Assembly (NCBI RefSeq): GCF_004363655.1
Contig: NZ_SNZH01000012.1
Coordinates: forward strand, 124,001-188,000
Source of the DNA: Tahibacter aquaticus
GTDB lineage: Bacteria; Pseudomonadota; Gammaproteobacteria; Xanthomonadales; Rhodanobacteraceae
Reading direction: 5' to 3'
DNA: 64,000 bases
The notes beneath the pieces are model-generated. The model had not been told where the DNA came from. It made no database searches and was given only the letters and a program-made list of their open reading frames with translations. A program made the position numbers and the translations under genes. Numbering within the stretch: position 1 is the first letter of the stretch; the number at the start of each line of letters is the position of its first letter. Positions 31,594 to 46,477 of this stretch are shown here, in pieces.

Positions 31594-33342
31594 CTAGCCC
31601 GTGGTGCCGTCGGCGCGCTGGTCCAGTTCCTCGTCCTCGTTCACGGCCTGCGACTCTTCCAGCTCGACCGCGGTCGGGGCTCGCCCGATCAGCACGCGCT
31701 GGTAGGAATTGCTCGCATCGACCACGGTGACATCGCCCAGGCGCGCCACGCTGGCACGGGCCTCCCAGTCCAGCGGATCTGCCGGCCGGGTCAGTTCCAG
31801 CTCGTGTGCATGGCGGTCGAACAGATGCGGTGCCAGTACCGTCATGGCATGGCCGTTGTCCTGGTCCATCAGCAGCACGCCGCGCATGGCTGCACGCACC
31901 TGGCTGCCTGGATCGAAGCTGGCCACGCCGACCGGCTGGGCACGCCGCGCCAGCAGTTCGATACCGGCGTCGACCGAGTCCGCATCGTCGATGCGGATCC
32001 AGCGGATCACGCCGACCATCCAGTCCTGCGTCTCGTCATCGTCATCGGCCGCAGACGGTGCCAGGCCGACCAGCTCGCCGACCTTGGCCCGGGCCAGGTC
32101 GGCCTGGTCCCAGACCAGGCGGTAACCGCCCAGGCTTTGATCGAGCACCCGCGCGCTCTGCACGGCCGGCCGCACTTCGCTGCTCTGGCTGGCCCAGCCG
32201 GCAATGCTGTCCCGCTCGGACAGGCTGATGGCCTGGCCGCGCACGCGGCGCAGGAAGGTATCGAAATCTTCGCCACCGGCCAGCATATGGTGCAGTGCGT
32301 GCAGGCCGATCACGCTGTCGAGCTGATGCCCGGCCGGCAAGCGGGCATGGCCGCGTTCGGCACTGCCGCCCCAACTGCGCATCAGCCGCTCGACCACCAA
32401 ACGGCGTGCCTGCACAGCCGGCCCGCCCTTGAGGCGGAAGCTGAGCAGGTCGGCGCCGCTGGGCAGCAGGCGGACATGGCCTTCGACGGTGTCCTGCACC
32501 GGGTGCGGATCGAACGACAGCAGCCCCTCCGCCGCCGCCTGGCGTTCTTCCGGCACATAGCCTACGCCCTGATCGACGTCGGTCAGCACGGCAAAGCCGG
32601 CGCTGGCGCCGCGGCCCTGGCTGATACGGCAGAACGGCGCCAGCGCGCGGGTGAGCGCAAACACGTCGCCCATCTCGCGCTGGGTGTAGCGATACGGATT
32701 GCTCAGCGCCAGCAGCAGCGCATGGGCGTAGGCGTGGCGCGCCGACAGTTCCGCCCCGCCCAGGGTCGGATCGACCACGGCCTTGTCGTCCAGGCGCAAG
32801 GCCAGCGTGGCGAGGAAAATGTCGTGCAGACGCAGCCATACGCCCGGCGGCGGCGTGTGGTAGAGCGAATAGGCCTTGGCCAGCAGGCTGCCGCCGTGCT
32901 GGAGCGCACGCACGGCCGCCGTGGCAACCGCCTTGCTCTTGAGAAAGGGCACCTTGCCCGCCGGGGCACAGAAGTCGTACAGCGACTGGGTATAGCCCAG
33001 GGCGATCTCGCGCTCGAAATCCTGCGCCATGCGCGCCTGCTGCAGCTTGGCCGGCGGCAGCGGGAAACTTTCCAGCAGGATCTGCCGGTCGACGCCACCG
33101 ACCACCTGCAGCATCGGCCCGCGCAACAGCTCCAGCGCGTCCAGCCGTTGCTGCGCATCGATGCGCATGCGGTTCATCACCATCAGCGCATCGAGCAATT
33201 GCCGCGCCGTCGCCGCCGGGTTGGCCAGTGGCAGGTGATTCAGCCAATTGCGTACTGCCTTGGCATCAGTGGCGAAGTCGTCGCGCAGCGGCGGATGCCG
33301 TTCAGGCCAGCCACGGGCCAGCCGGTTCAACCAGTCATTCAT
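31594..33342 (-). CDS. Conserved protein of unknown function, possible C-terminal PilZ-like region
   Basis: The protein has 582 residues, mostly alpha-helical, with no signal peptide or membrane helix. I do not recognise a named family with confidence. The C-terminal third (from about residue 450) has MVGVIRWIRIDDADSVDAG followed by IELLARRAQPVGV, which looks like the beta-barrel end of PilZ-type c-di-GMP receptors, although no clear RxxxR plus DxSxxG pair is seen. Given three other c-di-GMP genes in the window, a receptor role is plausible but unproven. It is monocistronic. A 12-base palindrome lies upstream. Confidence 0.6.
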   Translation of the reverse strand: MNDWLNRLARGWPERHPPLRDDFATDAKAVRNWLNHLPLANPAATARQLLDALMVMNRMRIDAQQRLDALELLRGPMLQVVGGVDRQILLESFPLPPAKLQQARMAQDFEREIALGYTQSLYDFCAPAGKVPFLKSKAVATAAVRALQHGGSLLAKAYSLYHTPPPGVWLRLHDIFLATLALRLDDKAVVDPTLGGAELSARHAYAHALLLALSNPYRYTQREMGDVFALTRALAPFCRISQGRGASAGFAVLTDVDQGVGYVPEERQAAAEGLLSFDPHPVQDTVEGHVRLLPSGADLLSFRLKGGPAVQARRLVVERLMRSWGGSAERGHARLPAGHQLDSVIGLHALHHMLAGGEDFDTFLRRVRGQAISLSERDSIAGWASQSSEVRPAVQSARVLDQSLGGYRLVWDQADLARAKVGELVGLAPSAADDDDETQDWMVGVIRWIRIDDADSVDAGIELLARRAQPVGVASFDPGSQVRAAMRGVLLMDQDNGHAMTVLAPHLFDRHAHELELTRPADPLDWEARASVARLGDVTVVDASNSYQRVLIGRAPTAVELEESQAVNEDEELDQRADGTTG

Positions 33343-35850: not shown

Positions 35851-38262
35851 ATGAGCGAGCGTTTTCGGATTGCCATCGTCGGATCGGGCCCGGGCGGACT
35901 TTCCGCCGCCGCGCGCGCGGCCGAACGCGGCGAGTCGCATGTGCTGCTGGAAGCCGAGCCCCACCTGTCCAACACCCTTTATCGCTACCAGAAGGGCAAG
36001 TTCGTCATGGACGAGCCCGGGATACTGCCGCTGCGCTCGCCCGTGCCGTTCAAGGCCGGTTCGCGCGAAAGCATCCTCGAAGGCTGGGACCAGGCCGCCG
36101 CCGCGCTGAAGATCAATGTGCGGCACAACCACGAAGTCAGCGCGATCAAGCAGCGCAGCGACGGCGGCTTCGACATCAAATGCGTCAACGGCGCCAGCTT
36201 CGAGGCGCAGTTCGTGGTCATGGGCATCGGCCTGCAGGGCAATATCCGCAAGCTTGGCGTCGCCGGCGAAGACCTGCCCTTCGTGCAATACCAGCTCGAC
36301 GACCCGGACGAATACGAAGGCGAGACCATCGTCGTCGTCGGCGCCGGCGACGCGGCGATCGAAAACGCCATCGCCCTGGCCAAGCAGAACAACGTCGTCA
36401 TCATCAATCGCCGCGACGAATTCGCCCGCGCCAAGAAAGGCAACGAGACCGCCATCCTCAAGGCGATCGAGGACGGCCTGATCGAGTGCTATTACAACGC
36501 GGCGCCCGAACGCGTCGACGCCCTCAGCGTCGGGCGCAAGAAAGGCCGCATGGTGTTGTCCACGCCCAACGGCAAGGCCCAGTTGCTGATCGACCGTGTC
36601 ATCGGCCGCCTCGGCGCCACCGCGCCGCGCGGCTTCGTCGAAGCCTGCGGAGTGACCTTTCCGAGCAAAGACCCGGCCGCCGTGCCGGCAATCAGCCCGC
36701 AGTACGAGTCCAACGTCAAGGGCCTGTACATCGTCGGCGCCCTCGGCGGCTACCCGCTGATCAAGCAGGCGATGAACCAGGGCTACGAGGTCATCGAATA
36801 CATCCGCGGCGACAAGGTCGAGCCGGCCGACGAGCCGCTGCTGAAGGGCAAGCTCGACGGCATGCCTGGCTTTCGCAGCGTCGACGACTCTCTGGCACGC
36901 ATCCAGAAGAACGTGCGCGTGCTGTCGCATATCACGCCGCTGCAGCTGCGCGAATTCATGCTCGACTCCGACCTGCGTACGCCGCGCCCGGGCGAGGTCG
37001 TGTTTACGCGCAACGACTACACCAACAGTTTCTATTCCATCGTCGACGGCGAAGTGCATATCGCCCTGGATACCGAAGGCAAGCAGCACATCACCCTGCG
37101 CCGTGGCGAATTCTTCGGCGAAATGGGCCTGATCTCGGGCCGGCGCCGCTCGGCCACGGTCACCGCCGGCAACGGCTGTGTGCTGGTGGAAACGCCGCGC
37201 CGCTCGATGAACCGCCTGATCAACTCGGTCGCTGCGGTCAAGCGCGAGATCGACGAGGTATTCATCCTGCGCGCGATCCAGTCGCGCTTCGCGCCCGAGG
37301 CCAGCGTCGAGCAGCTCAAGGAAATGGTTGCCGGCGCCACGCTGCAGAAATTCGCCGCGGGCGACGTCCTGTTCAACGAAGGCGATGTCGGCGACTGCCT
37401 GCACCTGGTGCGCGTCGGTTCGCTGACCATCTCGCGCAGCATCGGCGGCAAGGACGTGGTGCTGTCATACGTGCCTGCCGGCAACTACGTCGGCGAGATG
37501 GCCCTGCTCGGCGATTCGCGCCGCTCGGCTACCGCGCGCGCGGCAATCGCCACCGAAACCGTGCGCCTGGACGGCGACAGCTTCAAGAAGCTGGTGCAGC
37601 GCATGCCCGTACTGAAGCTGCGCCTGCAGGCCGAATATCGCCAGCGCGCCGCCTCCAACCTGGCCATGCAGGCCTTGCCCAGCGGCGGCGACATCATCCA
37701 GTTCCTGCTCGCCCAGGGCGCCGGCGAGGCAACCGATATCCTGCTGATCGACGAATCGCTCTGCGTGCGCTGCGACAACTGCGAAAAAGCCTGCGCCGAA
37801 ACCCACGGCGGCACCTCGCGCCTGGACCGCGAGGCCGGGCCGACCTTTGCCAGCGTGCACGTACCCACTTCGTGCCGCCATTGCGAACATCCGCACTGCA
37901 TGAAGGACTGTCCGCCCGATGCCTTGCGCCGCGCCCCCAACGGCGAGGTATACATTGCCGACAACTGCATAGGCTGCGGCAACTGCGAACGCAATTGCCC
38001 GTATGGCGTCATCCACATGGCTTCCAAGCCGCCGCCCAAGCCGGGCCTGCTGAACTGGCTGCTGTTCGGCCTGGGCAGCGGCCCGGGCGAAGCGCCGTAC
38101 GATCCCAAGAAGAAAAAAGAGCCAAAAGAGAAAAAAGCCGTCAAGTGCGACATGTGCAAGGACGAAAAAGGTGGCCCCGCCTGTGTACGCGCCTGCCCCA
38201 CCGGCGCCGCTATCCGCATTTCGCCCGAGGAGTTTCCGGCCTATGCGCAAAGCCGGCGCTGA
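35851..38262 (+). CDS. Flavin oxidoreductase fused to two cNMP-binding domains and a four-cluster ferredoxin
   Basis: The protein has 803 residues. Residues 5-320 form a thioredoxin-reductase-like FAD/NAD(P) module with IVGSGPGGLSAAA (FAD) and VVVGAGDAAIENA (NAD(P)), but no redox CXXC. Two cyclic-nucleotide-binding domains follow, about 355-455 (GEFFGEMGLI...RRSATV) and 488-590 (VGEMALL...RRSATA), each with the phosphate-gripping arginine-serine. Residues 638-785 hold four cysteine groups (CVRCDNCEKAC, CRHCEHPHCMKDC, CIGCGNCERNC, CDMCK...CVRAC) for four [4Fe-4S] clusters, as in DmsB-like subunits. No leader or membrane helix is seen. It appears to pass electrons from NAD(P)H to the membrane partners downstream under nucleotide control. 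Confidence 0.88.
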   Translation: MSERFRIAIVGSGPGGLSAAARAAERGESHVLLEAEPHLSNTLYRYQKGKFVMDEPGILPLRSPVPFKAGSRESILEGWDQAAAALKINVRHNHEVSAIKQRSDGGFDIKCVNGASFEAQFVVMGIGLQGNIRKLGVAGEDLPFVQYQLDDPDEYEGETIVVVGAGDAAIENAIALAKQNNVVIINRRDEFARAKKGNETAILKAIEDGLIECYYNAAPERVDALSVGRKKGRMVLSTPNGKAQLLIDRVIGRLGATAPRGFVEACGVTFPSKDPAAVPAISPQYESNVKGLYIVGALGGYPLIKQAMNQGYEVIEYIRGDKVEPADEPLLKGKLDGMPGFRSVDDSLARIQKNVRVLSHITPLQLREFMLDSDLRTPRPGEVVFTRNDYTNSFYSIVDGEVHIALDTEGKQHITLRRGEFFGEMGLISGRRRSATVTAGNGCVLVETPRRSMNRLINSVAAVKREIDEVFILRAIQSRFAPEASVEQLKEMVAGATLQKFAAGDVLFNEGDVGDCLHLVRVGSLTISRSIGGKDVVLSYVPAGNYVGEMALLGDSRRSATARAAIATETVRLDGDSFKKLVQRMPVLKLRLQAEYRQRAASNLAMQALPSGGDIIQFLLAQGAGEATDILLIDESLCVRCDNCEKACAETHGGTSRLDREAGPTFASVHVPTSCRHCEHPHCMKDCPPDALRRAPNGEVYIADNCIGCGNCERNCPYGVIHMASKPPPKPGLLNWLLFGLGSGPGEAPYDPKKKKEPKEKKAVKCDMCKDEKGGPACVRACPTGAAIRISPEEFPAYAQSRR

Positions 38263-38310
38263 GCAAGCCATGACGCGGATCACCTTCCCGGCAACGGCGG
38301 CGGCACCGGC

Positions 38311-39219
38311 ATGAGCGCCCGCCACGATTCCATCCTCAACCACGCCCGCTCGCGCTGGCTGTGGATTTCGCTGACGCTGTCGCTGGCTGCGATCGTCGCC
38401 TACGCCCTGCACTCGCCTTCGGTGCCGCCCAACGGCGGCACCTGGCTGGGCTACACCCTGGGCAGCATCGCCGGACTGCTGATCATCTGGCTGATGCTGT
38501 TCGGCCTGCGCAAGCGCTCCTACTCGGGCAGTTCCAGCCTGCGCGGCTGGCTTTCTGCACATATCTACCTTGGCACTACGCTGATCCTGCTCGCCCTGCT
38601 GCATGCAGGCTTCCAGGCCGGCTGGAACCTGCACACGTTTTTCCTGCTGCTGATGCTGCTGGTGATCTTCTCGGGCTTCTTCGGCGTCTACTGCTACCTG
38701 CGCTATCCCACGCTGATGACGCGCAACCGCGACAGCACCACGCGCAACGCCATGCTGGAAGAAATCGGCGAACTGGACCAGAACGCCCTGGCCCTGGCCG
38801 ACGGCATCGATCCCAAGGTGCACGGTGTGGTACTGCGCTCGATCCAGAACACGCGCCTGGGCGGCGGCGTGCTGACCCAGCTGCGCGCCCACGACGACTC
38901 AGACGCAGCCCTGACCGGCATCCGCGCAGCCCTGGAAGCGCGCGAAAAAACCAGCCAGGCCGCCAGCGGTGCCAAGTCGGGCCAGACCATCTTCGCCATG
39001 GTCGATTTCCTCGCCAGCGGCACCAACGACCGCCAGGCCGAGGCACTGCGCAAGCTGATCGACCTGCTGTCGCGCAAGAAGGCGCTGGCGTCCAAGGTCG
39101 CCCGCGACATCCAGTACCAGGCGCTGATGGAGATCTGGCTGTACTTCCATGTGCCGCTGTCGTTCGCGACCGTGGCGGCGCTGATCGCCCATGTCGTATC
39201 CGTTTTCTTCTATTGGTAG
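38311..39219 (+). CDS. Cytochrome b-like multi-pass membrane protein
   Basis: The protein has 302 residues. Helices are at about 15-33, 45-66, 83-100, 107-130 and 277-299, with a 140-residue soluble, charged, helical insert between the last two. Histidines placed within or beside the helices (His84, His98, His108, His280, His294) could ligate two b haems. I see no match to a named cytochrome b family, so this is based on topology and context. It is 48 bases after the flavin-ferredoxin gene and 74 before the ten-haem cytochrome gene, probably in one operon. Confidence 0.75.
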   Translation: MSARHDSILNHARSRWLWISLTLSLAAIVAYALHSPSVPPNGGTWLGYTLGSIAGLLIIWLMLFGLRKRSYSGSSSLRGWLSAHIYLGTTLILLALLHAGFQAGWNLHTFFLLLMLLVIFSGFFGVYCYLRYPTLMTRNRDSTTRNAMLEEIGELDQNALALADGIDPKVHGVVLRSIQNTRLGGGVLTQLRAHDDSDAALTGIRAALEAREKTSQAASGAKSGQTIFAMVDFLASGTNDRQAEALRKLIDLLSRKKALASKVARDIQYQALMEIWLYFHVPLSFATVAALIAHVVSVFFYW

Positions 39220-39293
39220 GCCGCCACCGCCGGCGAGGGAAGCACTGTGAGCAAGCCGCCTGAGCCGCCGAGCATCGACCGGGAGAGCGCTGC

Positions 39294-40976
39294 ATGCGCT
39301 GGCTGATCCGCCGCGTCATCAAGCAAGGCAAGGGCGCCGTCTCCTACGAGGAAGACGTGCACTTCGGCGACGTGCTGAGCATAGGCCGCGCCGCCGACCA
39401 GGCCATTTTCCTGTCCGACATCCGCGCCGCGCTGAATCATGCGCGCGTGACTTCGCTGGGGCCGGGCCGCTACAAGGTCGAATCGCTGATCCTGTCCGGC
39501 ATCCGCGTCAACGGCGAGCTGACCTACGAAACCGATGTGGCCGCGGGCGCAGTGCTGGAAATCGCCTCCAACCGCATTACCCTGCTCGACCCGCCACGGG
39601 ATTTCGAAGCCGCGGTGGAAATCGGCGCGCTGGACAAGGCCGAACAGGAAGCCGTCAAGGCCAAGCGCGCCAAGCCGACTTCGCTCAAGCAGACTTGGCT
39701 GGGCAAGCGCCTGCCGTCGTGGATACTGTTCGTCGCCGTGCTGCTGTTCGGCCTGCTGCTGCCCGCCGCCTCGCATTTCCTGCCGGCGCTGGGCAAGGCC
39801 CTGCATCACTCGCCACTGCCCAGCACGGCAGCGTGGAACCCCGGCCCGCTGGATGCAGCACACCGTTTTTTCGGCGACGACTGCAAGCAGTGCCATGCCA
39901 CGCCGTTCCTGACCGTGCGCGATACCGCCTGTACCACCTGTCATACGCGCATGGCGGCGCATGCAGATCCGGCCCGCTTCAACCTGCCCCAGCTCGGCGA
40001 AGCACGCTGCGCCAGCTGTCATCAGGATCATCTTGGCCTGGCCGGCATGGTCAACACGCAGGAATCGCTGTGCAGCACCTGCCATACCGACCTGAAGACA
40101 CGCACGGCCAATGCCAGCCAGCTCGACGACGCTACCGATTTCGGACGCCATCACCCGCAATTCCGTGTGCGCCTGCCGGCCTGGCAGGCCGACGGCGGCT
40201 TCGCACCGCAGCTGACCCGGCTGAGCGAAGGGCTGAAGGAGAACTCGGGCCTGAAATTCGATCACGCCCTGCACCTGAAGCCCGAGCTCAATTCACCCAA
40301 GGGGCGCCGCAATCTGCAATGTTCCACCTGTCACCAGCCCGATGCCGGCGGCCTGGCGATGAAGCCGGTCGACTTCGAGAGCATGTGCCACGATTGCCAC
40401 ACCCTGGGCTTCGACACGTTCGCACCGGATCGCCAGGTACCGCATGCCAAGGTGGCCGAAGTGGTCTACATGCTCGACGACTACTACGCCAAGCGTGCGC
40501 TCGAAGGCGGCTATACCGAGGCCAGTGCGCCCGGCTTCGTGCAACAGCGCCGCCGGCCCGGCGAGGCAGCGCTGAGCCAGCAGGAAACGGTCGAGGCCCT
40601 GAGCTGGGCACGCAACAAATCGCGCCAGGTCGCCGACAGCCTGTTCACCGGCCGCGCCTGCGTCACCTGCCACGCCGTCAGCCGCGATGCGGCAGCGGCG
40701 AACACGCCGGGATCGGGCTGGAAGATCGCACCGGTGCGGGTTGCCGGCATCTGGTACGGCGAGGCGCGTTTCACCCACGCCAAGCACTCCACCATGCAGT
40801 GCAAGGACTGCCACAACGCCGAGGCCTCGGCCAGCGCGACCGACCTGCTGATTCCCGGCATCGACAATTGCCGCCAATGCCACGCGGGCGAGTCCGGCGG
40901 CAGCAAGGTGGCCAGTACCTGCATCGCCTGCCATCGCTACCACCAGTCCACAAGCCTGCAATTGAAGCAATTGTAA
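39294..40976 (+). CDS. FHA-like domain, membrane helix and ten-haem cytochrome c
   Basis: The protein has 560 residues. Residues 28-96 look like an FHA domain (LSIGR, LNHARVTS, GIRVNG). A basic linker leads to one helix at about 142-162, then a region with ten CXXCH motifs from residue 197 to the C-terminus (CKQCH, CTTCH, CASCH, CSTCH twice, CHDCH, CVTCH, CKDCH, CRQCH, CIACH). The helix has no cleavable leader, so the FHA part should be cytoplasmic and the haems periplasmic. FHA domains bind phosphothreonine. Such a fusion with a multihaem cytochrome is uncommon. GGGAGAG precedes the ATG. It likely receives electrons from the b-type partner. Confidence 0.88.
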   Translation: MRWLIRRVIKQGKGAVSYEEDVHFGDVLSIGRAADQAIFLSDIRAALNHARVTSLGPGRYKVESLILSGIRVNGELTYETDVAAGAVLEIASNRITLLDPPRDFEAAVEIGALDKAEQEAVKAKRAKPTSLKQTWLGKRLPSWILFVAVLLFGLLLPAASHFLPALGKALHHSPLPSTAAWNPGPLDAAHRFFGDDCKQCHATPFLTVRDTACTTCHTRMAAHADPARFNLPQLGEARCASCHQDHLGLAGMVNTQESLCSTCHTDLKTRTANASQLDDATDFGRHHPQFRVRLPAWQADGGFAPQLTRLSEGLKENSGLKFDHALHLKPELNSPKGRRNLQCSTCHQPDAGGLAMKPVDFESMCHDCHTLGFDTFAPDRQVPHAKVAEVVYMLDDYYAKRALEGGYTEASAPGFVQQRRRPGEAALSQQETVEALSWARNKSRQVADSLFTGRACVTCHAVSRDAAAANTPGSGWKIAPVRVAGIWYGEARFTHAKHSTMQCKDCHNAEASASATDLLIPGIDNCRQCHAGESGGSKVASTCIACHRYHQSTSLQLKQL

Positions 40977-41043: not shown

Positions 41044-44000
41044 TTACGGTTCGAAGCCGTCGGCAAACAGGCCGTCGCCGACTTCCAGTACGAACGGAAC
41101 CGCCGTCTTCGGTTCGTCCAGATCGGTACCGTTGCTGTCGACACAGACGAAGCCGCGGTAGGTACCCAACGCCAGCGAGGCGGCATTCGCCGTGATCACC
41201 GACGTGGCCGTTCCCGCGACGCCCAGGCTGCCGGAGGTCGGCGAAGCACTGAGCCAGGGCGCACCGCAGACAACGTTGGTGGTGATGCCCAGCGCCAGCG
41301 ACGCGATCGACGGCGGCGGACCGGCTACAGCCGTCAGCGCCGTCCAGTTCGGCGTACCCAGCGACGGCGTGCTGATGGACATCGGTGGCAAGCCGTTGGT
41401 GCTGGTGGCACGGCCATAGATCCAGCGCCGCGACGCGGTGGTGCCGGGCACGGTCGGATAGACAACGGCCCAGTAGCGCACACCGGCTGCCAGCGCCGGC
41501 GGTGCCGGGCAACCCGCAGCTGCCGCCGTATCCAGGTTAAGGCCGAACGAAGCGCCGTCGGTGGTGCGGAAAATCAGTCCGCCGCTGTTCGGTCCGCTGG
41601 GCGTACGCACGCAGGAATACAGCTCGCCTGCCGCGCCGGCTTCAGGACTGCCGGCGGGTTGGCCGGCGGCATCGGAGTAGACCTTGAAGGTGATCTGCGT
41701 CGCCGTCGCCTGCAAGGTTCCGCCGCTGCCGGTCATGAAACCGTTCACGTCGATGGAGCGCAGCGCGGCGTCGTCAGGCGAGGTGAAATCTTCCGCCTGG
41801 TAGAAACCCGCGTTCTGGCCGGTGAAGAAATTCGAGGAGTTGCCGCGGATACCGTCGTAGGCCTGGTTCTGCAGATTCACCGGCGCGGTGCCGGCAGGGT
41901 CGATATCCCAATCGACGCTCGGATTGCCCAGATTGCGCACGTCGAGGTTGCGCGTGACCGACAGGCCGGCGGAAACAACCGCGCTCAGCGACATCGGCGT
42001 GATGTCGATTTCCGGCAGGCCGCGGCGCAGCGCGATCGGCAGGCGTGCAGTCGGAATCGCCGCGTTGCTGGGTGTCAGTACCAGTTCACCGAACAGGGTC
42101 TGGGCGTCCGGCAGTTGCAGGGAATCGGCCGACAAGGTGATGGCCTGGGTAGCGGCATTGGCCACGCTGAACGAGGTCGGCGCCACCGTGACCACACCGG
42201 CAGCGAAGCCGTTGACGGTCGCGGTCCAGGTAACCGGCGCGGTACGCGTACTCTTGAGCGTGCGCGCAAAGGTACAGGTGCCGACGCAGGACAGGTTCTG
42301 GAAGCTGGCGATGTTCAGCTGTCCCGGATCGCCGCCCAGGGCCGGATTCGCCGCGGCGTAGTTCGCCCCGGTTTCGTCCAGCACCAGCCCGGCCTTGCTC
42401 GCCCGTGCCACGTCGATGCGGCCGGCGCCGGTCGCGAACGGCGTAGTCGGCGTGAGGCCGTCGACTTCCATCAGGTTCGGATTTGCCGTTGTCGTCAGCG
42501 CCGACTTGATCTGCGCCGGCGTCCACGAACGGTTGAGCGAACGCAGCAGCGCCGCCGAACCCGCGACGTGCGGTGCTGCCATCGAGGTGCCGCTGATGGC
42601 ATTCACGACGGTGTTGTTGGCCGTGTTCACGGCGCCGCCGAACGGTGCCGGTGCCGCCGAAGCCCAGCGCGTATAGGCCGCCAGGATTTCGACGCCGGGT
42701 GCGGCGAGATCGGGCTTGAGCAGGTTGAATGCGTTCGGTCCGCGCGAAGTGGAGTAGTACACCGCATCCGGCGCACCGGCAGTGACCTGCAGCGGCACTT
42801 CGATACGCGCATCGGCGGTCGCCGGACTGGTGGCGATATGCGCGGCCACATTGACCCAGTCGCGCAGCAGCATGGAGTAGCTGGTCGCGCTGGCGCCCAG
42901 GCTCAGCGGCGCCACGTCGACGAAGATCACGCCGGAAGCGCCCGCGTTCAGGGCCGCGGTGCGGCGCACGCCGCTGGCACAGGCACTGGTGGCACCGTCC
43001 AGACGCAGCACGGCAATGCCCGACACACCGCCCGGTGCCGCCGGCCGGCGGAAGGCATCGGCTGGATACGCGACGCAGCCGTCGGTGGCGCCGTTGCCGA
43101 AGTTGGGGCTGACGATGATCGGCCCGGTCAGGGTTGCGGTCGCGATCGGCGCTCCGCCAGGGCGTACCGTGAGGTTCTGCGTATTCGGCGGCAGCGAACC
43201 CGGTGCGGTCAGCGAGAAATTGAAGCCGAACACGCGGTCATGCATGGTACCGCCGACAGTAATCGTCCACGGTTCCAGATGTCCCAATGTGGCGGGGGTC
43301 GGACCGGAATTGCCGGCCGAGGCCACGACCACGATGCCGGCGTTCTGGGCGGCAAGGAAGGCCTGCGAGGTGGCATCGGTCCAGGGCTGTGCACCACCGC
43401 CGATGGAATAGCTCAGTACATCGACCACACCGTCGGCGACGGCCTGGTTGGCCGAGGCAGTAGTCGCGGAAAACGGACACTGGCCACCGGCAGCGCTGGT
43501 ATAGCAGGCGTCGTAGATGACCAGGTTGGCATGCGGCGCCACGCCGGACACATTGCGGTTGATGCCGTTGAAGGTCACCTGGCGCGCATTGCCGACCGCA
43601 GTACTGGAGGTATGCGAACCGTGGCCGCCTTCGTCTTCGAAGCCGCGCGCCTCCACATTCGGCGCTGCCGCCAGCGCGTCCATGAAGTCCCAGCCGCCGA
43701 TCAGCTTGTCGTTGCACAGGTCGCGCGTGGGCACGTGGTTCGGGTTGGACGGATTGCACCAGCCCAGATAGCTGCCGGCGCCCAGCGGATTGACGTGGGC
43801 ATAGCCATCGTCACCCATGGCGGCGTAGGCGGGATTGGCGATATTCAGGCCGCTGTCGATCACACCGACCACGACACCGGCGCCCTTGGACGCAAGATTG
43901 CCCAGCGTGCCGCTACCGTCCCAGACGGCCGGCGCATTGATCATGGTCGGGCCGCGGTCGGTATCCAGCGTGTATTCGCCGTCGGCTTCGACCCGGGCCA

Positions 44001-44445
44001 CCTGCGGCAGCGACAGCAGCTGGCTGGCTTCCGCATCACTGAGTTCGGCCACGAAGCCGTTATAGGCGTGCTGGAAACGCAGCAGGGTGGTCACTTCGCG
44101 GCCCAGCAGCGCCGAGGCCTGGGCCAGTACCTGGTCCTGCTGCGCCTGCAGCTGCGCGACATAGCTTTGGGCGACCATCGATTCCAGCGCGAGGCGCCGG
44201 TTTTCGCGCCGCGGAATGGAAGCGGCCAGCGCCAGCGGCGCGTCCTTCAGGCCAACGATGAAGCGCGAGCGCGTCACCGCTGCGCCGGTGGCCGGGTCGG
44301 TGAAGGCGCGTTCGCCCGAGCGCGAGGCGCCCGCAGCGACGGACTCTTCCCCGCCGGGATTGCCGGCGGATGCGCCGGTGCCGAAAATCGTCAAGGCGAT
44401 CGCCGCAACCAGCGCCGTCCGCCTCCGCAACTGACTCACTTTCAT
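41044..44445 (-). CDS. Secreted S8 (subtilisin-like) serine protease
   Basis: The protein has 1133 residues with a signal peptide (residues 1-27). An inhibitor-I9 propeptide (about 60-160, from RFIVGLKD) precedes the S8 domain with Asp197 (GVIDSG), His275 (GGHGSH) and Ser621 (GTSMAAPH). A PA-type insert lies between about 430 and 560. Beta-rich C-terminal domains follow, including a pair of cysteines in LSCVGTCTF. The chain ends LFADGFEP, a short tail seen at the end of many secreted proteins in this bacterial order. GAGGGGAG precedes the start. It is probably a nutritional or antagonistic extracellular protease. Confidence 0.93.
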   Translation of the reverse strand: MKVSQLRRRTALVAAIALTIFGTGASAGNPGGEESVAAGASRSGERAFTDPATGAAVTRSRFIVGLKDAPLALAASIPRRENRRLALESMVAQSYVAQLQAQQDQVLAQASALLGREVTTLLRFQHAYNGFVAELSDAEASQLLSLPQVARVEADGEYTLDTDRGPTMINAPAVWDGSGTLGNLASKGAGVVVGVIDSGLNIANPAYAAMGDDGYAHVNPLGAGSYLGWCNPSNPNHVPTRDLCNDKLIGGWDFMDALAAAPNVEARGFEDEGGHGSHTSSTAVGNARQVTFNGINRNVSGVAPHANLVIYDACYTSAAGGQCPFSATTASANQAVADGVVDVLSYSIGGGAQPWTDATSQAFLAAQNAGIVVVASAGNSGPTPATLGHLEPWTITVGGTMHDRVFGFNFSLTAPGSLPPNTQNLTVRPGGAPIATATLTGPIIVSPNFGNGATDGCVAYPADAFRRPAAPGGVSGIAVLRLDGATSACASGVRRTAALNAGASGVIFVDVAPLSLGASATSYSMLLRDWVNVAAHIATSPATADARIEVPLQVTAGAPDAVYYSTSRGPNAFNLLKPDLAAPGVEILAAYTRWASAAPAPFGGAVNTANNTVVNAISGTSMAAPHVAGSAALLRSLNRSWTPAQIKSALTTTANPNLMEVDGLTPTTPFATGAGRIDVARASKAGLVLDETGANYAAANPALGGDPGQLNIASFQNLSCVGTCTFARTLKSTRTAPVTWTATVNGFAAGVVTVAPTSFSVANAATQAITLSADSLQLPDAQTLFGELVLTPSNAAIPTARLPIALRRGLPEIDITPMSLSAVVSAGLSVTRNLDVRNLGNPSVDWDIDPAGTAPVNLQNQAYDGIRGNSSNFFTGQNAGFYQAEDFTSPDDAALRSIDVNGFMTGSGGTLQATATQITFKVYSDAAGQPAGSPEAGAAGELYSCVRTPSGPNSGGLIFRTTDGASFGLNLDTAAAAGCPAPPALAAGVRYWAVVYPTVPGTTASRRWIYGRATSTNGLPPMSISTPSLGTPNWTALTAVAGPPPSIASLALGITTNVVCGAPWLSASPTSGSLGVAGTATSVITANAASLALGTYRGFVCVDSNGTDLDEPKTAVPFVLEVGDGLFADGFEP

Positions 44446-45961: not shown

Positions 45962-46477
45962 TCAGCCGCGCGGCTGGAAGCCACCGCGGAAAATCGTGTC
46001 GTCGCCGTGTTCGGGCGCGCCGGCGAGAATCCAGTCGTGCACCAACGCCTGCTCGTCCAACGGCAAGTCCGGCCGCGCCCGCGGCATGCGCAGGCCGACG
46101 TCCTGTATCGCGCAATTGAGCTTGGTGAACAGCAGGCTTTGGCGCGGCTGGCCCGGCACCACGCGGATCTGCGTGGCATTGGGATTGCTGCTGGCCTGGT
46201 CGACCAGGAAATACCAGGAGTTCGGCGGGTTCAGATCCAGGTCTGCTTCGGGAAACTCGCCCCAATCGACATGGCAGTTGGCACAGCGCTGGCTCCAGAT
46301 CGGCTGGATGTCGGTGTCGTAGTTGACGTGCTGGCGCAGCGGCACGCTCTCGATGCTGTCGCAATCGCCGGACCAGGGGGTGGGATCGAACAACGGCGCC
46401 TGCTGCGGCCAGGCTGCCAGCGTCAGCGGCAGGCCAGCCAGCAGCGCCACCACGACGATTCCGCGCACTGGCCTCAT
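45962..46477 (-). CDS. Secreted mono-haem cytochrome-like protein with DGFE-like tail
   Basis: The protein has 171 residues with a signal peptide (residues 1-22). A single CANCH haem motif lies at residues 65-69 after IQPIWSQRC, as in planctomycete-type cytochrome c domains. A helical region with LRMPRARPDLPLDEQ and a distal LVHDWILAGAP follows. It ends DDTIFRGGFQPRG, a variant of the IFxDGFE tail of the nearby protease. Its start overlaps the stop of the upstream membrane protein (ATGA). It may be an electron carrier or redox sensor, and the partner is unknown. Confidence 0.8.
   Translation of the reverse strand: MRPVRGIVVVALLAGLPLTLAAWPQQAPLFDPTPWSGDCDSIESVPLRQHVNYDTDIQPIWSQRCANCHVDWGEFPEADLDLNPPNSWYFLVDQASSNPNATQIRVVPGQPRQSLLFTKLNCAIQDVGLRMPRARPDLPLDEQALVHDWILAGAPEHGDDTIFRGGFQPRG

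What the first reader, a model, noticed from the sequence alone, without database searches (positions are those of the whole stretch)
35851..40976. Three-gene candidate transmembrane electron conduit gated by nucleotides and phosphopeptides
Three adjacent plus-strand genes encode a cytoplasmic flavin/ferredoxin oxidoreductase with two cNMP domains, a five-helix protein with membrane histidines, and an FHA-helix-decahaem cytochrome. Domain identities are read from the sequence. That the parts form one NAD(P)H-to-periplasm chain is inferred from order and spacing (48 and 74 bases). I know of no characterised system with two separate signal-binding domain types on an electron conduit.
Basis: partly seen in the sequence, partly recalled or inferred. 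Interest (0 to 1): 0.85.

Follow-up and report, generated by a model that had tools for sequence, protein, structure and literature searches.

The report
Predicted nucleotide-gated bacterial electron conduit
Three neighbouring genes, kept together in many proteobacteria and often followed by three genes for outer-membrane-type proteins, appear to build a wire that carries electrons from the cell interior into the envelope, with a built-in sensor for cyclic nucleotides such as cAMP.

Summary
Gene A encodes a YpdA-like FAD/NAD(P) domain, two cNMP domains and a HycB-like domain with 16 cysteines; B a five-helix membrane protein; C a weak FHA-like domain, one helix and ten CXXCH. A and B are fused in two genomes. 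Often three more genes follow: E (HbpS-like), D (AlgE-like barrel) and F (ten CXXCH, LVIVD repeats); in this genome they lie about 80 kb away. B has two histidine pairs 14 apart in helices 3 and 5, invariant in 65 of 65 and kept in 4 of 4 distant relatives examined that stand near cytochromes with 19-29 CXXCH, so it is probably a dihaem b protein. Cyclic-nucleotide gating is plausible (binding residues 81 of 81). Phosphopeptide gating is not supported. Direction, ligand and substrate are unknown. Ten paper searches found no description of it.

The parts
35851..38262 (+). Gene A: cytoplasmic FAD/NAD(P)-cNMP-cNMP-[4Fe-4S] oxidoreductase, 803 aa
35866..36783 (+). YpdA/TrxR-like FAD + NAD(P) domain (residues 6-311), no CXXC
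   Evidence: G11/G13/G16 in 80 of 81 (one gap), G164/G166 in 81 of 81
36982..37239 (+). first cNMP-binding domain (about residues 378-463)
   Evidence: G423, E424, R433 in 81 of 81
37345..37602 (+). second cNMP-binding domain (residues 499-584)
   Evidence: G548, E549, R558 in 81 of 81
37762..38196 (+). HycB-like domain, 16 Cys in a four-cluster pattern (residues 638-782)
   Evidence: formate hydrogenlyase subunit 2, 7z0s_B; 16 Cys in 81 of 81
38311..39219 (+). Gene B: five-helix membrane protein, predicted dihaem b cytochrome
38560..38604 (+). H84...H98 in helix 3, 14 residues apart: predicted haem ligands
   Evidence: 65 of 65; kept in 4 of 4 sister proteins examined
39148..39192 (+). H280...H294 in helix 5, 14 residues apart: predicted haem ligands
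   Evidence: 65 of 65; kept in 4 of 4 sister proteins examined
39294..40976 (+). Gene C: FHA-like - one helix - decahaem cytochrome, 560 aa
39372..39605 (+). FHA-like domain, phosphothreonine site degenerate
39699..39794 (+). membrane anchor of C
39882..40934 (+). ten CXXCH haem-binding motifs, predicted periplasmic
   Evidence: ten CXXCH in 63 of 64 loci that hold C (exception L067, frame ending early, seven); L037 and L038 have nine CXXCH plus one CX4CH

Best explanation
A, B and C form an inner-membrane electron conduit that is controlled by a cyclic nucleotide. NAD(P)H reduces the FAD of A. Electrons pass through four [4Fe-4S] clusters in A's C-terminal domain to B. They cross the membrane over two b haems (predicted H84/H280 on the cytoplasmic side, H98/H294 on the periplasmic side) and enter the ten c haems of C in the periplasm. 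In many of the organisms C then delivers to an outer-membrane unit of D (AlgE-like barrel), F (decahaem with LVIVD repeats) and E (HbpS-like protein), giving a path from cytoplasmic NAD(P)H to the cell surface. The two PKA-like cNMP domains lie between flavin and clusters, where binding of cAMP or cGMP could open or close electron flow. The FHA-like domain of C probably serves docking rather than phosphopeptide sensing. Shown here: gene order, co-occurrence, fusions, motif conservation, and predicted folds of B (no PDB match) and D (barrel). Inferred: cofactors, electron path, direction, gating, partners, localisation.
For: Co-occurrence: A in 9 of 299 phylum genomes, strong B (E<=1e-24) in the same 9; class sample of 321: A in 14 (one, G306, matched over residues 379-802 only), strong B (E<=1e-55) in 15 = those 14 plus G501, where B begins 818 bases from a contig end. 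Order: 64 of the 80 best loci found by A alone carry A-B-C; so do 8 of 8 other strong phylum genomes and 3 of 3 examined Sphingobium plasmids of 12 hit. A-B fusion in G153 and G034. D in 6 of 299 and 12 of 321 genomes, each time with B; order A-B-C-E-D-F in 37 of 80 loci. Cofactor residues: 16 Cys 81/81, four helix His 65/65, ten CXXCH in 63 of 64 C. Topology of B by positive charges puts the His pairs at matching depths. Four of four distant B relatives examined (of six found) keep the four His and stand beside or within about 1.3 kb of cytochromes with 19-29 CXXCH; three of four have an A-like flavoprotein within 5 kb. cNMP: Glu and Arg of both cassettes 81/81, PKA/PKG alignments; a metallophosphoesterase directly follows C in 6 of the 11 loci L029-L039 (two checked, weak SpdA/CpdA similarity). 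D: Foldseek to AlgE, E=2.6e-16. CcmF present in the genome.
Against: No biochemistry. B's model has no PDB match at E<=0.001 and its profile none better than E=0.79, so 'dihaem b' rests on histidine spacing. NAD(P)H specificity and direction are not readable from sequence. 11 of 80 loci have A without B or C in the stretch held, 3 of them without D, E or F either; G001 has a second A at C17 with no B hit on that contig; in G333 and G515 A and B are on different contigs. Five loci with more than 5 kb after C have no E, D or F, and G153, G034, G001, G323, G333 and G383 have A and B without a D hit. The 80 loci are the most A-like of 573, so the rest were not seen. The class III cyclase hits of the window genome lie on other contigs. 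D is AlgE-like, not shown to hold a cytochrome. Hosts such as Tahibacter, Dokdonella and Sphingobium are not known to me as metal respirers (recalled).
Confidence: 0.6

Rival explanations
1. Same conduit run inward: electrons from a periplasmic or extracellular donor pass F/C to B to A and reduce NAD(P)+ or a cytoplasmic acceptor.
For: The parts are the same and reversible. Some hosts are soil bacteria, as the Sphingobium plasmids show. Nothing in the sequence fixes direction.
Against: c and b haems are usually of higher potential than NAD(P)H, so inward reduction of NAD(P)+ needs a very low-potential donor or energy input (established knowledge, recalled). I saw no donor-oxidising enzyme among the widely shared neighbour clusters.
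Confidence: 0.17
2. B is a quinol/quinone oxidoreductase: C is fed by the quinone pool, and A either joins at the quinone or only regulates.
For: Weak resemblance of B to cytochrome b561 (PF01292, 20.3 bits, cut-off 30.1); the extra invariant His108 at the start of helix 4 could serve a quinone site.
Against: A-B fusion and mostly neighbouring genes point to direct transfer; four of four sister proteins examined lack His108 but keep the four others.
Confidence: 0.13
3. One reading: electron flow gated both by nucleotides and by a phosphothreonine protein bound to the FHA domain.
For: An FHA-like domain with an invariant Gly-Arg pair stands before the membrane helix of C.
Against: Profile score below cut-off; in the GarA alignment the Ser and Asn positions are Ala and Ser; Ser in 2 of 65 and Asn in 2 of 65 homologues.
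Confidence: 0.06
4. A is a redox/cNMP sensor for signalling and the cytochromes only sense periplasmic redox state.
For: Two ligand domains on A.
Against: All 16 cluster Cys (81 of 81), nearly always ten CXXCH (63 of 64) and frequent D/F neighbours are a heavy investment for a sensor; A shows no output domain among the 25 Pfam families listed.
Confidence: 0.04

Closest known systems
Porin-cytochrome conduits MtrCAB / OmbB-OmaB-OmcB / ExtABCD
   Same: Multihaem c cytochromes (ten haems each in MtrA and MtrC) with an outer-membrane barrel, in gene clusters with exchangeable parts (PMC6148476, PMC5877670, passages seen)
   Different: D resembles AlgE, while MtrB has 28 predicted strands (PMC5877670 passage); C has a membrane helix and an FHA-like domain; the cluster brings its own NAD(P)H-type module, whereas in Geobacter electrons leave the quinone pool through CbcL or ImcH (PMC6148476 passage)
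Geobacter extHIJKLMNOPQS cluster
   Same: Porin, several multihaem cytochromes, a b cytochrome and an Fe-S protein in one cluster (PMC5877670 passages); F has a weak match to ExtM, 64 bits
   Different: ExtM cut-off is 800 bits; ExtO/ExtP are Rieske and bc-type proteins; no cNMP or FAD protein is named in the passages seen
NADPH oxidase (NOX) / ferric reductase membrane cytochromes
   Same: NAD(P)H-FAD-two b haems across the membrane, His pairs 14/13 apart in helices 3 and 5 (recalled)
   Different: No ferric-reductase Pfam match to B; five helices; flavoprotein separate, TrxR/YpdA-like and with Fe-S clusters; electrons would go to c haems
Hmc/Tmc/Qrc-type transmembrane complexes of sulfate reducers (recalled)
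   Same: Cytoplasmic Fe-S, membrane b-type and periplasmic multihaem c subunits
   Different: No FAD or cNMP domain (recalled); only weak HmcA similarity (C 10.7 bits; two sister cytochromes 27.8 and 36.6 bits; cut-off 400)
Protein kinase A/G regulatory domains
   Same: Tandem cNMP domains with conserved Glu and Arg
   Different: Here the tandem pair is inserted in an oxidoreductase

Membership tests
cNMP-binding domain proteins (PF00027) | profile score above cut-off, two copies | tested here: met
   125.9 bits against 27.5, two stretches
cNMP-binding domain proteins (PF00027) | phosphate-binding cassette Gly-Glu and Arg (roles recalled) | tested here: met
   81 of 81 in both domains
cNMP-binding domain proteins (PF00027) | binds a cyclic nucleotide | not testable with these tools
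   needs a binding assay
FHA domain (PF00498) | profile score above cut-off | tested here: not met
   18.5 bits against 20.7
FHA domain (PF00498) | Arg, Ser and Asn of the phosphothreonine site (identities recalled) | tested here: not met
   Arg 65/65; Ser 2/65; Asn 2/65; positions set by alignment to GarA
YpdA bacillithiol disulfide reductase (TIGR04018) | curated score | tested here: not met
   107.2 bits against 339.9
MtrA/DmsE-type decahaem (TIGR03508) | curated score | tested here: not met
   29.7 bits against 192.2
Porin-cytochrome conduit (in the broad sense) | outer-membrane beta barrel encoded with multihaem cytochromes | tested here: met
   D in 59 of 91 loci by clustering of crude gene calls, barrel by AlphaFold/Foldseek; F with ten CXXCH in 7 of 8 complete copies and in the window genome
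Porin-cytochrome conduit (in the broad sense) | cytochrome held inside the barrel; [quoted passage not shown]
   needs complex structure or proteoliposome assay
NOX/ferric reductase | FRD-family sequence match | tested here: not met
   no such family among B's four Pfam hits at E<=1
NOX/ferric reductase | two bis-His b haems between helices 3 and 5 | tested here: inconclusive
   His pairs 14/14 apart, invariant 65/65; no fold match
ExtM selenite/tellurite cytochrome (NF040943), for F | curated score | tested here: not met
   64 bits against 800, F of Sphingobium
b561/Ni-hydrogenase cytochrome b (PF01292), for B | curated score | tested here: not met
   20.3 bits against 30.1

The most novel reading that the evidence does not exclude
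A ligand-gated trans-envelope electron conduit: cyclic nucleotides switch a soluble NAD(P)H flavo-iron-sulfur module that feeds, without the quinone pool, a dihaem b wire, a decahaem periplasmic cytochrome and an outer-membrane barrel/decahaem exit. Second-messenger control would then act on electron flow to the cell surface directly, as in a ligand-gated channel, in proteobacteria that are not known (to me) for extracellular respiration.
Probability: 0.42. Interest if true: 0.92.

Novelty: new variant of a known kind. Interest (0 to 1): 0.78.

Why it matters
To my knowledge the characterised conduits to the cell surface are fed by the quinone pool and none carries a second-messenger domain on its electron path (recalled; of the two papers of which I saw passages, PMC6148476 describes the quinone feed in Geobacter). 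Here one conserved cluster appears to link NAD(P)H to the outer membrane and to carry its own cyclic-nucleotide sensor. If true, cAMP or cGMP could turn envelope electron flow on and off without new gene expression. The module occurs in environmental Lysobacterales, Solimonas, Alcanivorax, Sphingobium plasmids, Rhodospirillaceae and betaproteobacterial MAGs (record names). It gives a ready set of genes for testing.

Tried and rejected
Phosphopeptide gating: rejected as the leading idea after conservation counts. B as a member of a known cytochrome b family: no match above cut-off in Pfam or NCBIfam, none in PHROGs at E<=0.01, none better than E=0.79 with a profile in the PDB, none by Foldseek at E<=0.001. 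F as ExtM: score far below cut-off. Cyclase proximity as proof of the ligand: CHASE2-type cyclases lie in 7 of 91 loci by my clustering (two of the seven checked with Pfam) and beside B in G403, but I made no background count, three of the seven share one arrangement, and the window genome's two cyclase hits are on other contigs; kept only as a hint. Metallophosphoesterase after C: seen directly after C in 6 of the 11 loci L029-L039 (Sphingobium and genomes of other classes of the phylum) and, by clustering, in none of the 80 loci; the two checked score 134-140 bits for SpdA and 76-86 for CpdA, below the cut-offs of 400 and 225; hint only. E as a lipoprotein: my pattern hit 31 of 49, at least five by a wrong motif; not claimed. 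Hypergeometric values treat genomes as independent and are not used as evidence. Paper searches without a relevant hit: no papers listed; four papers listed, judged by title and start of abstract only; one search gave the two Ext papers, of which I saw passages. The library lacks preprints and most subscription journals, so absence from print is not established.
Full report
OBSERVATION. The three plus-strand genes exist as described: A 35851-38262, B 38311-39219, C 39294-40976, gaps 48 and 74 bases. A matches Pyr_redox_3, cNMP_binding (two stretches) and Fer4 families above cut-off. B has five hydrophobic regions. C has ten CXXCH after one hydrophobic segment; 20000 shuffles gave at most two CXXCH. 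The FHA match is below its cut-off (18.5 against 20.7 bits). The window is part of a 7.27-Mb genome whose closest named relative found is Tahibacter (T. harae: A 93, B 92, C 86 per cent identity); the genus name is an inference.

ARE THE THREE GENES A UNIT? Yes. Searching 299 genomes of the phylum with B gave 18 hits at E<=0.001, nine of them strong (E<=1e-24) and nine weak (E>=1e-7). Searching 299 phylum genomes with A (E<=1e-120) gave the same nine handles. The eight strong genomes other than the window's own, and three Sphingobium megaplasmid loci of the 12 plasmids hit, hold A, B and C in order, matched over most of their length. In two genomes of one genus (G153, G034) A and B are one open frame of 1125 and 1120 aa. 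Of these 80, 64 have A-B-C in order, five have A and the beginning of B at a contig end, and 11 have A without B or C in the stretch held. In 321 genomes of the class, 14 have A (G306 matched over residues 379-802 only); all 14 have strong B; a fifteenth, G501, has B 818 bases from a contig end and D. By the coordinates, A and B are neighbours in 11 of the 14, about 6 and 13 kb apart in G403 (two copies), and on different contigs in G333 and G515. Against this: G001 has a second A with no B hit on that contig.

A LARGER CLUSTER. Clustering of crude gene calls in 91 loci (11 plus 80) showed three further partners: D in 59, E in 57, F in 50 loci. Over the 80 loci the orders were ABCEDF 37, ABCED 11, ABC 7, ABCE 6, AB 5, EDFA 5, A 3, ABCDF 2, DFA 2, ABCEF 1, FA 1. 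Many short sets end at contig ends, but L063, L066, L085, L092 and L110 have more than 5 kb after C and no E, D or F. L085 and L092 (beside A-B-C) and L087 (beside A-B) instead carry another pair: a five-CXXCH cytochrome and a protein that in L092, the one checked, has no Pfam match. Of the 11 loci without B and C, eight have F before A, seven of these also D and five E; in seven of the eight a c554-cluster gene lies between F and A. The other three (L068, L069, L075) have none of the five. In the window genome E, D and F (ten CXXCH) sit on the same contig at about 245323-247719, 247721-249538 and 249549-253763, some 80 kb past C and outside the window; in T. harae (L040) and G154 (L032) E and D follow C within about 2 kb. 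D is found only in genomes that have B: 6 of 6 (phylum) and 12 of 12 (class); the converse fails for G153, G034, G001 and for G323, G333, G383. E has HbpS-like domains, F has LVIVD repeats. The model of a D protein (Dokdonella immobilis, pLDDT 74.6, 40 sequences) is a beta barrel whose best PDB matches are the alginate exporter AlgE (E=2.6e-16), then chitoporins and Occ porins.

COFACTORS AND TOPOLOGY. In A the 16 cysteines of the C-terminal domain are invariant in 81 of 81 sequences, and that domain aligns over most of its length with a HycB-type subunit. There is no CXXC in the FAD domain, as in YpdA-like reductases (recalled). In C, ten CXXCH are kept in 63 of the 64 loci that hold C; L067 has seven in a frame that ends early, and L037 and L038 have nine plus one CX4CH. 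In B, of ten histidines, H84, H98, H108, H280 and H294 are invariant in 65 of 65. Each of the two pairs is 14 residues apart, in helices 3 and 5; that spacing is typical of dihaem b cytochromes (recalled). Charges place the N-terminus, the 2-3 loop and the 4-5 helical domain inside, so H84 and H280 lie toward the cytoplasm, H98 and H294 toward the periplasm. The AlphaFold model of B is confident (pLDDT 85.9, pTM 0.78) but matches no solved fold at E<=0.001. Six weaker B relatives (E 8e-12 to 4e-9) turned up in the class search. I looked at four (G500, G525, G329, G373; not G312 and G375): all four keep the four paired histidines and have Ser for H108, and all four stand beside, or within about 1.3 kb of, cytochromes with 19 to 29 CXXCH; three also have, within 5 kb, a flavoprotein about 30-36 per cent identical to parts of A's FAD domain, with one short stretch up to 46 per cent (in G329 split over two called frames). 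In G500 that flavoprotein carries ferredoxin domains and no cNMP domain. This sister system, apparently ungated, is the best independent argument that B passes electrons between a flavoprotein and multihaem cytochromes. The window genome encodes CcmF, a part of the usual c-haem maturation system (recalled).

SIGNAL DOMAINS. Both cNMP domains align with PKA and PKG regulatory domains and keep Gly-Glu and the Arg that in those proteins hold ribose and phosphate (roles recalled) in 81 of 81. A metallophosphoesterase directly follows C in six of the 11 loci L029-L039 (two checked, weak SpdA/CpdA similarity below cut-off) and CHASE2-cyclases lie in 7 of 91 loci; both are hints, not proof. In the FHA-like domain the positions aligned to GarA's Ser and Asn are Ala and Ser here, and Ser and Asn in only 2 of 65 homologues each.

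MECHANISM. NAD(P)H to FAD to four Fe-S clusters (A), two b haems (B), ten c haems (C), then, where present, D/F/E at the outer membrane; a cyclic nucleotide on A sets the rate. The order of parts is inferred from anatomy; direction is inferred from the usual potentials; gating is inferred from domain position between flavin and clusters.

KNOWN RELATIVES AND NOVELTY. It works like a porin-cytochrome conduit joined to an NOX-like membrane step, but fails the score or sequence tests for the named cytochrome, reductase and FHA families tested (membership table); the cNMP domain test is met. From PMC5877670 and PMC6148476 I saw passages only. Ten searches of the paper library found no description of this cluster. 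The annotation of one Sphingobium plasmid calls the proteins 'cyclic nucleotide-binding domain-containing protein', 'hypothetical protein' and 'cytochrome c3 family protein'.

Noticed in passing
L193:6175-8976, L194:6903-11936, L195:2764-7148, L196:2831-6968: Sister system: B-like five-helix proteins beside or near cytochromes with 19-29 CXXCH, with an A-like flavoprotein within 5 kb in three of four (no cNMP domain in the one scanned).
   Followed up: partly
L037:3052-6423, L038:6850-10206: A and B fused in one open frame in two genomes of one genus; their C proteins have nine CXXCH and one CX4CH.
   Followed up: yes
L087:1839-5215, L092:1784-5247, L085:12979-16389: Another pair (five-CXXCH cytochrome and a 538-548 aa protein, no Pfam match in the one scanned) beside A-B-C or A-B, perhaps an alternative outer-membrane exit.
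   Followed up: partly
window 41044-44445 (-): A subtilase (Peptidase_S8) gene lies directly after C, where L040 (T. harae) and L032 have E and D; suggests a rearrangement in this genome.
   Followed up: partly
window 31594-33342 (-): 582-aa protein without Pfam match; by crude clustering its relatives lie in 14 of the 91 loci, mostly beside IspG and upstream of the operon.
   Followed up: no
L197:16453-18690 (-): CHASE2-guanylate/adenylate cyclase gene divergent to B in a genome where A and B are split by about 13 kb.
   Followed up: partly
L087, L116, L119: MAG record titles naming Klebsiella pneumoniae or Bordetella parapertussis; the system is otherwise found in records named as environmental proteobacteria, so the titles may be mislabelled.
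   Followed up: no
window 45962-46477 (-): Small protein (171 aa) with one CXXCH, no Pfam match.
   Followed up: no
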